This document shows positions 1 to 4,260 of a stretch of 5,288 bases of DNA, piece by piece; positions within the stretch are counted from its first letter, which is position 1; the number at the start of each line of letters is the position of its first letter. Under the pieces are notes generated by a model. The model did not search any database, was not told where the DNA came from, and saw nothing but the letters and a program-made list of their open reading frames with translations. The DNA lies in NCBI GenBank assembly GCA_031274335.1, contig JAISQG010000255.1:1-5288 (forward strand), given 5' to 3'. The translations under genes were made by a program, and so were the position numbers. The stretch comes from Gracilibacteraceae bacterium (GTDB taxonomy: Bacteria; Bacillota; Desulfitobacteriia; Desulfitobacteriales; Syntrophobotulaceae).

Positions 1-42
1 TTCCGCCAGCCGGCGCCCGGCGAATAGCAGCCTGTCAGACAA
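1..42 (-). CDS. Possible start of the gene following the FliG-like tail (partial, runs off left edge)
   Basis: A TTG codon at 42..40 opens a frame that stays open to the window edge and reads [14 protein letters not shown]. It overlaps the last codons of the PPDK/FliG-like frame by 8 bases. A strong purine-rich site, GGAGGGG (49..55), sits 6 bases upstream, an ideal ribosome-binding distance. In flagellar operons fliG is usually followed directly by fliH, so a fliH start is the contextual expectation. The 14 visible residues are too few to recognise FliH or any other family, and the name is therefore left open. Confidence 0.3.
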
Positions 43-145
43 ACTGATCCCCTCCGTCTCCCTTGCCGATAACTATCTTGCCCTCAGCTTCGAGTTTCTT
101 GTCCGCTCTCAGAATGGACTGCTGGGCTTTCTCCACATCGGCCAC
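35..145 (-). other. fliG: FliG-like C-terminal segment inside the chimeric frame
   Basis: Residues 70-105 of the frame follow the pattern that closes FliG proteins: V-x-D-V-E-x-A-Q-Q-x-I, a charged helix, L-E-x-x-G-x-I-V-I, then a short Gly/Asp-rich tail ending in a hydrophobic residue. FliG is the flagellar motor switch protein that couples the rotor to the stator. Only its last 35 or so residues are present, with none of the torque helix or middle domain. The identification rests on remembered family patterns and not on an alignment. The strong ribosome site and overlapping start just downstream fit the compact layout of a flagellar operon. Confidence 0.65.
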
Positions 146-352
146 CGCCGGCGCCACCTGCTCCCACAGCCCCGGCGGAAAAGTCTCTCCGCCTTCGTAA
201 TATTCACGACAGACTTCGGTCGTCAACGTAAAGCCAAAAGGCACATTCAGCCCGATGTTCGTCATTTCAGCCAGGTTAGCCCCCTTGCCGCCGAGCAGGT
301 TGCGCATCCCCCTGTCGCCTTCGCGGAATAAATAAACGTATTTTTTCGCCAT
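35..352 (-). CDS. ppdK: Truncated pyruvate phosphate dikinase N-terminus joined in frame to a FliG-like C-terminal tail
   Basis: A 105-residue frame. Residues 1-75 or so are the beginning of the PPDK nucleotide-binding domain: MAKKYVYLF start, the [17 protein letters not shown] block (19-35) with the conserved Lys23, and GFTLTTEVC (40-48). Full PPDK is close to 880 residues and converts pyruvate, ATP and phosphate to PEP, AMP and PPi. Everything after about residue 76 is missing here: the rest of the ATP-grasp domain, the swivelling phosphohistidine domain and the PEP/pyruvate barrel. Instead, residues 70-105 match the end of FliG (DVEKAQQ, then [11 protein letters not shown], then a Gly/Asp-rich end). 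The ATG at 352 is chosen over one 24 bases upstream because AAAGGA (361..366) lies 8 bases before it and PPDK proteins begin at this point. It lies 47 bases downstream of the regulatory-protein gene, the usual location of ppdK. As it stands the product cannot be a working PPDK. Confidence 0.8.
49..55 (-). promoter_or_regulatory. Ribosome-binding site for the left-edge TTG frame
   Basis: GGAGGGG on the minus strand lies inside the 3' end of the FliG-like coding sequence, 6 bases before the TTG at 42..40. It is the main reason for taking that frame seriously. Confidence 0.35.
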
Positions 353-1224: not shown

Positions 1225-1231
1225 AAGGGAA

Positions 1232-1238
1232 CCTCCTT
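1232..1238 (-). promoter_or_regulatory. Ribosome-binding site of the PPDK regulatory protein gene
   Basis: AAGGAGG on the minus strand, 7 bases before the ATG at 1224. It is a near-perfect anti-16S match and fixes the start. Confidence 0.85.
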
Positions 1239-1257
1239 GCGTATGAATATCGTTTCA

Positions 1258-1286
1258 ATTATAAACCACACCGCGAAAAAGCACAA
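1258..1286 (-). promoter_or_regulatory. Sigma-70-type promoter for the PPDK regulatory protein gene
   Basis: On the minus strand a perfect -10 TATAAT (1263..1258) is preceded by TTGTGC (1286..1281) at exactly 17 bases. The -35 matches the consensus only in TTG. The predicted start near 1251 gives a leader of about 27 bases that contains the ribosome site. This suggests the regulatory gene can be transcribed independently of the MATE gene, which ends at 1331. I see no clear intrinsic terminator between the two genes. Confidence 0.65.
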
Positions 1287-1330
1287 CAGTTTTTCAAGGG
1301 CGCGGGCAAAGCGATTCGGCGAGAGGCTGA

Positions 1331-2725
1331 TTAAATTCGCATTCCCAGCTGTTTGTCTTGGTCGGCTTTCTGTTCGCGGGTGAGCCGCTTCATGTCCGAC
1401 GTGAATAAACCCATCGTCACGGCACCGGCCAGAACGTCAGCCACCGGCATGGCGAGCCAGATACCCAGCAGCCCGAAAAAGCGCGGCAGGACAAACAGAG
1501 CCGGGATGAGGAAAATGCATTGCCGCGTCAGAGTGAGAACCAGGGAAATTGCTCCGCGGCCGGTGGCCTGAAAATATTGGCTCCCGATGATTTGCGCGCC
1601 GACGATCATATACAAGGCCAGAAACACACGCAAGCCGTAAACGCCCATATCCGTGAACCCCTCGTCCCCGCCAAACAGGCGTACGAGGACATGGGGCAGG
1701 GTTTCTGCGAAAACAAATCCGGCCGCTGTCATCGCGGAAGCGATGATCATTCCGCCATACACGGCTTTTTTCACCCGCTCAAAATTGCGGGCGCCGTAAT
1801 TGAAGCCGACGATGGGCTGCACACCCTGCGCCACGCCCATTACCGGCATGATAAAAACCATTACGATACCGTTGATCGCGGCATAGGCCGCGATAGCCGG
1901 ATCGCCGCCGTACATTTCCAAGCGGTTGTTAAATATAATGAGGACGAGCGAAGTGGCGGCCTGCGCCGAAAAAGGAGCGACGCCGACGCCTAAAATGCCG
2001 CGCAGGATGCGGATGTCAATGAGAATGTTTTTCCGGCGCAGCCGGAGGACGGAAGAAGCTCGCGGGAAAATCAGATAGTGCAGAACCCAAACCGCGGTGG
2101 CAGCCTGGGCGCAAACCGCAGCCAAGGCCGCTCCTCTCACGCCGAAATCCAGAACGTAAACCAGCAGGGCGGTGAGGCCGACGCTGACCACCGCGCCCAT
2201 AATCTGCGTCAGCATGGCCGTGCGCGGATGTCCTTCCGCCCGGATGAAATTATTCACGCCATAGCCGAGCCCGATGAACGGGATGCCGGGCAGAGAAAAA
2301 AGCATGAACTCTTTCGCGAAGGGCATGATATTGTCCGTCGCGCCCAAGAGGCGCAGCACGGGCTCCAAAAACAAAGCCAGAAACAATATGAGCGTCAGCG
2401 AGATGATCATCAGTGCCACGAACGCCGTGCCGATGATTTTATCCGCTTCCTCAATCTTTTTTTCGCCTAAGCGCAGCGATATCAGAGCGGTCGCTCCGAT
2501 GGTGATAAGCATGCTGAAGGCGATCATGATAATATTGACGGGGAAAGCTACGGCCACGCCGGAAAGAGCGTCCATGCCCTCTTTCTGCCCGACGAAAATC
2601 CGCGATATGATGTTGTAGGCGCTGCTCACCATCATGCCCACAATCGCCGGCAGCGAGTATTTCCACAGCAGCTTGCCTATGCTTCCCGTGCTGAATTCGC
2701 TTTGCGCGGAAGATATGTCACTCAA
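1331..2725 (-). CDS. MATE-family multidrug/cation antiporter, MepA-like
   Basis: 464 residues, typical for the family, with about twelve hydrophobic segments (roughly 22-45, 55-83, 99-120, 138-158, 172-192, 197-220, 243-266, 276-300, 320-341, 362-383, 393-413, 418-441) in two homologous halves. MATE proteins export drugs or metabolites across the inner membrane in exchange for H+ or Na+. MepA-type signatures are NNFIRAEGHPRTAM (158-171), GVRGAALA (195-202), YGGDPAIAA (272-280) and GVAQGVQPIVGFNYGARN (297-314). The N-lobe is odd: the Asp usual in the first helix is Ser41 (IISRIFVG), and the usual N-x3-D pair in the fifth helix is Ser181 and Thr185. The start is TTG with TGAGGA 7 bases upstream; an in-frame TAA lies just before it, so no ATG start is possible. 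Its substrate cannot be read from the sequence. It diverges from pgk and has its own promoter. Confidence 0.9.
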   Translation of the reverse strand: MSDISSAQSEFSTGSIGKLLWKYSLPAIVGMMVSSAYNIISRIFVGQKEGMDALSGVAVAFPVNIIMIAFSMLITIGATALISLRLGEKKIEEADKIIGTAFVALMIISLTLILFLALFLEPVLRLLGATDNIMPFAKEFMLFSLPGIPFIGLGYGVNNFIRAEGHPRTAMLTQIMGAVVSVGLTALLVYVLDFGVRGAALAAVCAQAATAVWVLHYLIFPRASSVLRLRRKNILIDIRILRGILGVGVAPFSAQAATSLVLIIFNNRLEMYGGDPAIAAYAAINGIVMVFIMPVMGVAQGVQPIVGFNYGARNFERVKKAVYGGMIIASAMTAAGFVFAETLPHVLVRLFGGDEGFTDMGVYGLRVFLALYMIVGAQIIGSQYFQATGRGAISLVLTLTRQCIFLIPALFVLPRFFGLLGIWLAMPVADVLAGAVTMGLFTSDMKRLTREQKADQDKQLGMRI

Positions 2726-2732
2726 ATCTTTT

Positions 2733-2738
2733 TCCTCA
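2733..2738 (-). promoter_or_regulatory. Ribosome-binding site deciding the TTG start of the MATE gene
   Basis: TGAGGA on the minus strand, 7 bases before the TTG at 2725..2723. An in-frame TAA only five codons upstream of the TTG rules out a longer N-terminus, and the first downstream Met is well inside the first helix. Confidence 0.65.
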
Positions 2739-2753
2739 ATTTAGCATTAATAC

Positions 2754-2799
2754 AAATTTTTAGTAATAAAATCGTTCCGCCCGGGTTTGGCGCGGAACG
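2754..2799 (-). terminator. Hairpin plus T-rich tract in the MATE leader (attenuator-like intrinsic terminator)
   Basis: On the minus strand CGTTCCGC (2799..2792) pairs perfectly with GCGGAACG (2780..2773) around an 11-base loop, which can add two more C-G pairs past a bulge. The stem is followed by ATTTTATTACT. It lies between the predicted MATE promoter and the MATE start codon, so it would act on the MATE transcript itself. The T-run is interrupted, which weakens the call. No minus-strand gene upstream would need a terminator here. Confidence 0.45.
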
Positions 2800-2813
2800 T
2801 CATCGCGTGACTA

Positions 2814-2832
2814 TTGCTGTATTATAGCACAA
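2814..2832. promoter_or_regulatory. Operator-like imperfect palindrome over the MATE -10 element
   Basis: TTGCTGTATTATAGCACAA is symmetric in its outer TTG/CAA and inner TAT/ATA blocks (12 of 19 positions match the reverse complement). It covers the -10 of the MATE promoter, where a repressor dimer would block initiation. Its right half resembles a Rex half-site (CACAA), but the left half does not fit well, so no regulator is named. Confidence 0.25.
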
Positions 2833-2849
2833 AACCTGCTCCGGCGCAA
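2821..2849 (-). promoter_or_regulatory. Extended -10 promoter for the MATE gene
   Basis: On the minus strand TATAAT (2826..2821) carries the TGC extension immediately upstream, and TTGCGC (2849..2844) lies 17 bases before it. Initiation near 2814 gives a leader of roughly 90 bases that includes the hairpin at 2773-2799. Confidence 0.6.
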
Positions 2850-2886
2850 GGCTGGTTGGTTCCGAGGGAATTTTTATCCGAAATTA

Positions 2887-2915
2887 TGCACAAAGCCTTC
2901 GCGATATGATATACT
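2887..2915 (+). promoter_or_regulatory. Candidate promoter for the pgk-tpiA-gpmI operon
   Basis: TATACT (2910-2915) is preceded at 17 bases by TGCACA (2887-2892), four of six matches to TTGACA. An overlapping alternative -10, TATGAT, sits at 2905-2910. Initiation near 2922 would give a leader of about 150 bases. The match is only moderate. Confidence 0.35.
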
Positions 2916-3016
2916 TGAGGAATCGGGTGACCCGCAAAAGTCCGGCACAATCTGCACAAGTTATTTCTGGACAGTTTCTGACGGGCGGGACACACACGGT
3001 TTTTCGCGGGGGCAAT

Positions 3017-3042
3017 GCTCAAAGAGCCGCGGATGGCTCCGC
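3017..3042 (+). promoter_or_regulatory. Mutually exclusive hairpins in the pgk leader
   Basis: GAGC at 3024-3027 can pair with GCTC at 3017-3020 (loop AAA), or GAGCC at 3024-3028 can pair with GGCTC at 3035-3039; GCGGA at 3029-3033 can instead pair with TCCGC at 3038-3042. A short T-run (TTTT, 3047-3050) follows. The arrangement could act as a switch or weak attenuator, but the stems are only 4-5 base pairs. Confidence 0.25.
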
Positions 3043-3065
3043 ATGTTTTACTAAAATATAGAAAT

Positions 3066-3070
3066 GGAGG
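3066..3070 (+). promoter_or_regulatory. Ribosome-binding site deciding the pgk start
   Basis: GGAGG lies 5 bases before the ATG at 3076. It overlaps the upstream in-frame ATG at 3064, which would therefore have no ribosome site of its own, so 3076 is preferred. Confidence 0.8.
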
Positions 3071-3075
3071 ACAAA

Positions 3076-4260
3076 ATGGCTGCAAATATGACGCAGGCTG
3101 ATGTACGAGGCAAACGGGTTTTTGTCCGCGTGGATTTCAACGTGCCGATGGATGAATCCCTGCGCATCACAGATGAAACGCGGATCAGGGCGGCGCTGCC
3201 CACCATCCGTTATCTCAGGGAGAAAGGGGCGAAAGTCATTCTCGCCTCCCATCTCGGCCGCCCCAAAGAGGGATTTGAGGCCAAATTATCGCTCGCTCCG
3301 GCGGCGGCGGCTCTCGGACGGCTCATCGGCACCCCGGTTATCATGGCGCCGGATTGCGTCGGCGCGGAAACAGCCGCTCTCGTTGACAAAATGCTGCCCG
3401 GCGACGTGCTGCTACTGGAAAACCTCCGCTTTCACGCCGAGGAGGAAAAAAACGACGACGCTTTTGCCAAAGAACTCGCCTCACTCGCCGACCTTTACGT
3501 CAATGACGCTTTTGGCAGCGCTCACCGCGCCCACGCCTCTACAGCGGGCATTGCCGCGTATCTGCCGGCCTGCGCCGGTTTCCTCATGGAAAAAGAACTG
3601 AATTTCCTCGGCAACGCCCTGAGCGCCCCGGAACGCCCGTTCGTCGCCGTCATCGGCGGAGCGAAGGTCAAGGACAAGATCGGCGTGGTGGAAAATCTGT
3701 TGACCAAGGTGGACACGCTCATCATCGGCGGCGGCATGGCCTACACTTTCCTCAAGGCGCAGGGATATGACGTCGGCAAATCCCTCCTGGACGAAGAAAG
3801 ACTCGAATTCGCTTCCGCCGTGCTGAAGCAAGGCGCGGAGAAAAATGTGCGCATCCTTCTGCCCGTTGACGTTGTGGCTGCGAAAGAAATAAGCGCCGCT
3901 TCACCGCGCCGCTTCACCTCTGCCGCAGAAATCGCCCCGGACGAAATGGCGCTCGACATAGGGCCGGAGACAGCCAAACTGTTCTCCGCCGTCGTGCGCG
4001 AGGCGCGCACCGTTCTGTGGAACGGGCCGATGGGCGTTTTTGAAATCGAAGCCTTTGCCGCCGGCACGAACGCGATTGCCGCGGCACTTGCCGATTGTAC
4101 CGGCGTGACCATTGTCGGCGGCGGCGATTCCGGGGCGGCGGTGGAAAAAGCCGGCTTGGCGGACAAAATGACGCATGTTTCGACGGGCGGCGGCGCGTCG
4201 CTCGAATTTCTGGAAGGCAAGGCTTTGCCCGGCGTCACAGCGCTGAAACAGGGGGACTGA
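3076..4260 (+). CDS. pgk: Phosphoglycerate kinase
   Basis: 394 residues, the usual bacterial monomer length. It transfers phosphate from 1,3-bisphosphoglycerate to ADP, giving 3-phosphoglycerate and ATP, in the cytoplasm. The substrate-side N-domain shows RVDFNVP (18-24), Arg36, SHLGRP (58-63), LLENLRF (113-119) and [13 protein letters not shown] (143-155). The nucleotide-side C-domain shows [11 protein letters not shown] (194-204) with Lys197, GGGMAYTF (218-225), WNGPMGVFE (315-323), GGGDS (348-352) and [13 protein letters not shown] (369-381). All catalytic positions I can check are intact. The start at 3076 is set by GGAGG at 3066-3070; an in-frame ATG at 3064 would add four residues not seen in the family. 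It is the first gene of a tight operon with tpiA and gpmI. Unlike many gap-pgk operons, no gap gene precedes it here; the upstream neighbour is the divergent MATE gene. Confidence 0.98.

What the first reader, a model, noticed from the sequence alone, without database searches (positions are those of the whole stretch)
119..145. In-frame PPDK-FliG chimera joined at a shared VADVEKAQ block
The frame begins as a normal ppdK next to its usual partner gene, then after about 75 residues turns into what looks like the last 35 residues of FliG and stops. The switch falls in VADVEKAQ (122..145), which suits both families at that place: PPDK has a helix with a similar acidic/Lys pattern there, and FliG has D-V-E-x-A-Q-Q. 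A junction inside shared sequence points to microhomology recombination or to a graph/PCR-type assembly chimera. If real, the locus lost most of PPDK and placed a flagellar tail, and perhaps the rest of a flagellar operon, behind the PPDK promoter region. An assembly artefact is at least as likely.
Basis: partly seen in the sequence, partly recalled or inferred. Interest (0 to 1): 0.75.

Follow-up and report, generated by a model that had tools for sequence, protein, structure and literature searches.

The report
Assembly chimera at a contig end
A reading frame at the very end of a metagenome contig starts as the enzyme gene ppdK and finishes as the last residues of a flagellar gene (fliG) that is closest to those of a different bacterial lineage; it is most likely a sequencing or assembly artefact, not a real fused gene.

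Summary
On the minus strand, window 352..125 encodes residues 1-76 of pyruvate, phosphate dikinase (70 of 76 identical to a same-genus PpdK), and 145..35 the last 36 residues and stop of FliG. Both fit in the block VADVEKA (145..125). The contig ends 34 bases after the stop.

Three results settle it. (1) The same genome bin holds the rest of ppdK: contig C218 opens in frame at residue 282 of the same-genus PpdK and runs to the stop; 4 of 4 same-genus genomes held have an unbroken ppdK frame. (2) The tail is not like this genus. Its best match, 35 of 36 residues, is FliG of a MAG labelled Deltaproteobacteria, in a clade with Candidatus Adiutrix; the two same-genus FliGs aligned match 16 of 33. 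(3) In one search of 5.8 billion proteins, only the window itself carried the join.

The foreign tip is about one short read long (124 nt past the block), most likely a cross-species chimera joined through a word of about 21 bases. The source fliG itself was not found (longest exact word shared with a fliG in hand: 13 bases), and no reads were available, so a rare real recombinant is not formally excluded.

The parts
125..352 (-). 5' part of ppdK, residues 1-76 (the shared block is its last 21 bases)
   Evidence: 70 of 76 residues identical to PpdK of same-genus genome G003; TIGR01828 E 5.1e-26; same-genus ppdK identity stops after window 125
125..145 (-). shared block VADVEKA in which the join lies
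   Evidence: 20, 18, 18 and 17 of 21 bases identical to the 4 same-genus ppdK genes; 14-19 of 21 to 29 fliG loci
35..124 (-). foreign tip: last 29 codons and stop of a fliG closest to deltaproteobacterial (Adiutrix-type) fliG
   Evidence: with the block, 35 of 36 residues identical to FliG of L074; window 124..38 has 56-74 of 87 bases identical, ungapped, to 29 such loci
1..34 (-). last 34 bases of the contig, after the fliG stop; not identified
   Evidence: no clear similarity to ppdK or to the 29 fliG loci (identity 0.34-0.39 in the last blocks); contig end
400..1224 (-). ppsR, regulator of PPDK, the usual neighbour of ppdK
   Evidence: PF03618 E 1.1e-97; PRK05339.1 E 4.1e-94; also next to ppdK in G003 and G004

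Best explanation
The PPDK-FliG frame is most likely a cross-species chimera made by short-read assembly or library preparation at the end of contig C166, joining this species' ppdK to a foreign fliG through a shared word that is likely about 21 bases long (VADVEKA). Shown: the join of two families, the contig end 34 bases past the stop, the later part of ppdK on contig C218 of the same bin, and the foreign affinity of the tail. Inferred: that both organisms were in one sample, that both carried the same word of about 21 bases, and that the join arose at low coverage where the assembly of ppdK broke, either as a false link in a de Bruijn graph at a small k or as a chimeric read. The cell itself most likely has an ordinary full-length ppdK behind ppsR.
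For: Own bin: PF01326 matches at two places only, C166 (profile 2-57) and C218 (profile 271-315), which do not overlap. C218 is open from its first base in the ppdK frame and matches residues 282-882 of G003 PpdK, 536 of 601; C166 matches residues 1-76, 70 of 76. 4 of 4 same-genus genomes have an unbroken frame of 890-901 codons over this ppdK. Tail: 35 of 36 residues with L074 and 29-35 in all 29 loci L074-L102; at most 20 in the other 51 of the 80 kept loci; 16 of 33 in the two same-genus FliGs aligned; 44% identity over 32 residues in 4 of 4 same-genus genomes. No other FliG_C in the bin. Of 4 proteins found among 5.8 billion with words from the junction and tail, the 3 others are plain FliG ends. 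Foreign tip of 124 nt past the block, at a contig end. One base (102) differs from 29 of 29 fliG loci and turns an otherwise constant Ala into Asp, which fits thin coverage. In a spike-in study, species of low to intermediate coverage were more often built into chimeric contigs (PMC7881036, passages).
Against: No reads, depth or mate pairs were available. The source fliG was not found: none of the 29 fliG loci has the exact 21-base block (14-19 of 21), and the longest exact word shared between the window's ppdK part and any of them is 13 bases, L099. About 205 residues of ppdK are in neither contig, so the link C166-C218 is inferred. The genes after ppdK differ between C218 and relative G004, so synteny does not confirm that link. 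The base at 102 could be natural variation. The sample of origin is unknown.
Confidence: 0.95

Rival explanations
1. A real recombination in the cell: microhomology joined the end of a horizontally acquired deltaproteobacterial fliG to the first 76 codons of ppdK, breaking ppdK in this strain or in a subpopulation.
For: The join is in frame and inside a block that fits both genes; no reads exclude it.
Against: The rest of ppdK is in the same bin and as conserved as the start; 4 of 4 same-genus genomes have an unbroken ppdK; the foreign part ends with the contig after 124 nt; only the window carried the join in one protein search.
Confidence: 0.02
2. The tail comes from this species' own fliG, through a rearrangement or a misassembly within one genome.
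For: The bin is 67% complete and its own fliG is missing, so it cannot be compared directly.
Against: FliG tails of 4 of 4 same-genus genomes match the tail at only 44%, 16 of 33 residues in the two aligned, against 35 of 36 in a deltaproteobacterial MAG.
Confidence: 0.02

Closest known systems
Interspecies chimeric contigs of metagenome assembly (e.g. PMC7881036, passages seen)
   Same: Two organisms' sequences joined in one contig of a fragmented bin, at a contig end; the missing half of the broken gene is elsewhere in the bin.
   Different: Here the join happens to keep the reading frame and a shared peptide, so that it looks like a fusion protein. Read depth could not be checked.
Pyruvate, phosphate dikinase (ppdK) next to ppsR
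   Same: Residues 1-76 and the neighbour gene ppsR.
   Different: Everything after residue 76 is missing from this frame; residues 282 to the end are on C218.
FliG, flagellar motor switch protein, of the Candidatus Adiutrix-type Deltaproteobacteria
   Same: The last 36 residues and the stop; 35 of 36 with L074.
   Different: Nothing of FliG upstream of those 36 residues is present.

Membership tests
Pyruvate, phosphate dikinase (TIGR01828) | match over the whole model of 865 positions, above its cut-off of 843 bits | tested here: not met
   positions 1-80 only, 90.9 bits; the remaining part is on C218
FliG (TIGR00207) | match over the whole model of 338 positions, above its cut-off of 226.7 bits | tested here: not met
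   positions 303-337 only, 19.6 bits
Cross-species chimeric contig | the two sides have different closest lineages | tested here: met
   ppdK side: same genus, 84-91%; tail: deltaproteobacterial FliG 35 of 36, same genus 16 of 33
Cross-species chimeric contig | the interrupted gene continues elsewhere in the assembly | tested here: met
   C218, residues 282-882; residues 77-281 not found in the bin
Cross-species chimeric contig | both parents share an exact word at the join | tested here: inconclusive
   20 of 21 bases with ppdK of G003, 14-19 of 21 with 29 fliG loci; the source fliG is not in hand
Cross-species chimeric contig | read support drops at the junction | not testable with these tools
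   no reads held

The most novel reading that the evidence does not exclude
A real, rare cross-lineage recombinant in which a bacterium's ppdK was joined in frame to a deltaproteobacterial fliG through a shared word of about 21 bases, in a subpopulation of cells.
Probability: 0.02. Interest if true: 0.5.

Novelty: not a real feature. Interest (0 to 1): 0.06.

Why it matters
It shows how a chimeric contig tip can pass as an in-frame gene fusion when the shared word encodes a peptide that both families use in the same frame. Such frames enter protein databases as short 'fusion' proteins. Three checks used here would catch them: the contig end, the missing half elsewhere in the bin, and a tail from another lineage. 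If the reading is right, there is no new biology in the frame itself.

Tried and rejected
A real gene fusion is rejected as the main reading because ppdK continues in the same bin and the tail is foreign. The species' own fliG as source is unlikely given the divergence of same-genus FliG tails. The exact source fliG was looked for and not found: the genome-contig scan gave relatives, and a viral-contig scan with P0002 gave 34 pattern matches and no relative. A DNA search with window 1-148 in 25 genomes of the family (own included) gave, besides the window itself, only short matches, the best being 23 of 24 bases on the ppdK side in G003 (list cut by the tool). Rfam: 0 matches in the window at E up to 1. 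I looked for an assembler behind the data: PMC9137090 (passages) used metaSPAdes with k 21 to 71, but the fliG MAG records carry k119 names, which suggest another assembler (recalled), and the window's own data set is unknown; no assembler is claimed. PMC10281810 and PMC7953547 were seen in passages. Paper searches. No claim is made that such a join is absent from the literature.

Full report
What the window is. The window is the whole of contig C166 (5288 bases) of a genome bin of 1,485,589 bases in 285 contigs, 67.2% complete. On the minus strand it carries the start of ppdK, ppsR (400-1224) and a MATE transporter (1331-2725). On the plus strand are pgk, tpiA and the start of gpmI; these three are named from their sequences by recall, not by a family search.

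The observation. The 105-residue frame 352..35 is PpdK over residues 1-76 and FliG over the last 36, with VADVEKA in both. NCBIfam sees both families in the one protein: TIGR01828 residues 3-82, E 5.1e-26, and TIGR00207 residues 70-104, E 4.7e-4. Mean base identity to 4 same-genus ppdK genes is 0.83 over 160..146, 0.88 over 145..131 and 0.33 over 130..116. To 29 fliG loci it is 0.37, 0.77 and 0.83 over the same stretches. The switch therefore lies within 125..146.

The ppdK side. Of 41 genomes searched (own included), 40 matched. In the 39 matching relatives the best match, to ppdK, ends between residues 74 and 86 of the query; weaker matches in some of them are to related dikinases or to FliG ends. 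The 4 same-genus genomes have unbroken frames of 890, 897, 898 and 901 codons there. Two more distant relatives show shorter frames (677 and 398 codons), which by their coordinates run into contig ends. In the window's own bin, PF01326 matches at two places only: C166, profile positions 2-57, and C218, positions 271-315. C218 is open from its first base in the ppdK frame to the stop. Against G003 PpdK, C166 matches residues 1-76 (70 of 76) and C218 residues 282-882 (536 of 601). The two contigs are complementary parts of what is most likely one gene, with about 205 residues missing between them. Gene order after ppdK does not help: C218 has other genes there than relative G004.

The FliG side. 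The bin holds no FliG_C match besides the window's own. The protein search with residues 64-105 gave 4 proteins among 6 candidates: the window's own and three FliG ends at 84, 81 and 70% identity. A profile of those three found 223 relatives in genome contigs, of which the best 80 were kept. In 29 of these 80 (L074-L102) the tail is identical at 29-35 of 35-36 aligned residues, best L074 with 35 of 36. By their titles, 25 of the 29 are MAGs called Deltaproteobacteria bacterium, 3 are MAGs called Candidatus Adiutrix sp. and 1 is the chromosome of Deltaproteobacteria bacterium Smac51. The other 51 loci reach at most 20 residues. Of the 29 FliG loci taken from relatives of the window's genome (of 55 relatives with a match), the best reaches 19, and the two same-genus ones 16 of 33. 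In one search the 4 same-genus genomes all match at 44% over 32 residues. That the tail comes from a gut, perhaps termite, community is inferred from Candidatus Adiutrix being a termite gut lineage (PMC10281810 and PMC9137090, passages); it was not read from the records of this bin.

Mechanism. The block 145..125 shares 20 of 21 bases with ppdK of G003 (18, 18 and 17 with the other three) and 14-19 of 21 with the 29 fliG loci. None of the latter has it exactly, and the longest exact word shared between the window's ppdK part and any of those fliG genes is 13 bases. The source fliG is not in hand, so that both parents had the same 21 or so bases is an inference. A word of this size would be enough for a false link in a de Bruijn graph at small k (metaSPAdes was run from k = 21 in PMC9137090) or for template switching in library preparation; the two cannot be told apart here. 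The foreign tip is 124 bases past the block, about one short read. One base of it (102) differs from 29 of 29 fliG loci and changes an Ala that is constant among them, which fits thin coverage but may be natural. PMC7881036 reports that species of low to intermediate coverage are more often built into chimeric contigs (passages).

Verdict. A real recombinant is left at 0.02 for want of reads.

Noticed in passing
window 1225-1330 and 2726-3063: In the same-genus genomes the three blocks of this contig (ppdK-ppsR; MATE; pgk-tpiA-gpmI) match on different contigs, and the gene before ppsR differs. This may be ordinary rearrangement between species or further joins; not resolved.
   Followed up: partly
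window 2919-2985: The stretch before pgk has diverged copies (84-89% over 38-64 bases) on contigs C41, C264 and C15 of the same bin; a small dispersed repeat. Rfam has no match in the window.
   Followed up: partly
L072 (G000:C218) 1828-3471: In this bin ppdK is followed by a small frame that looks like a CBS-domain protein and an isocitrate dehydrogenase-like gene (names by eye), whereas in G004 a recJ-like gene lies there on the other strand (name by eye).
   Followed up: no
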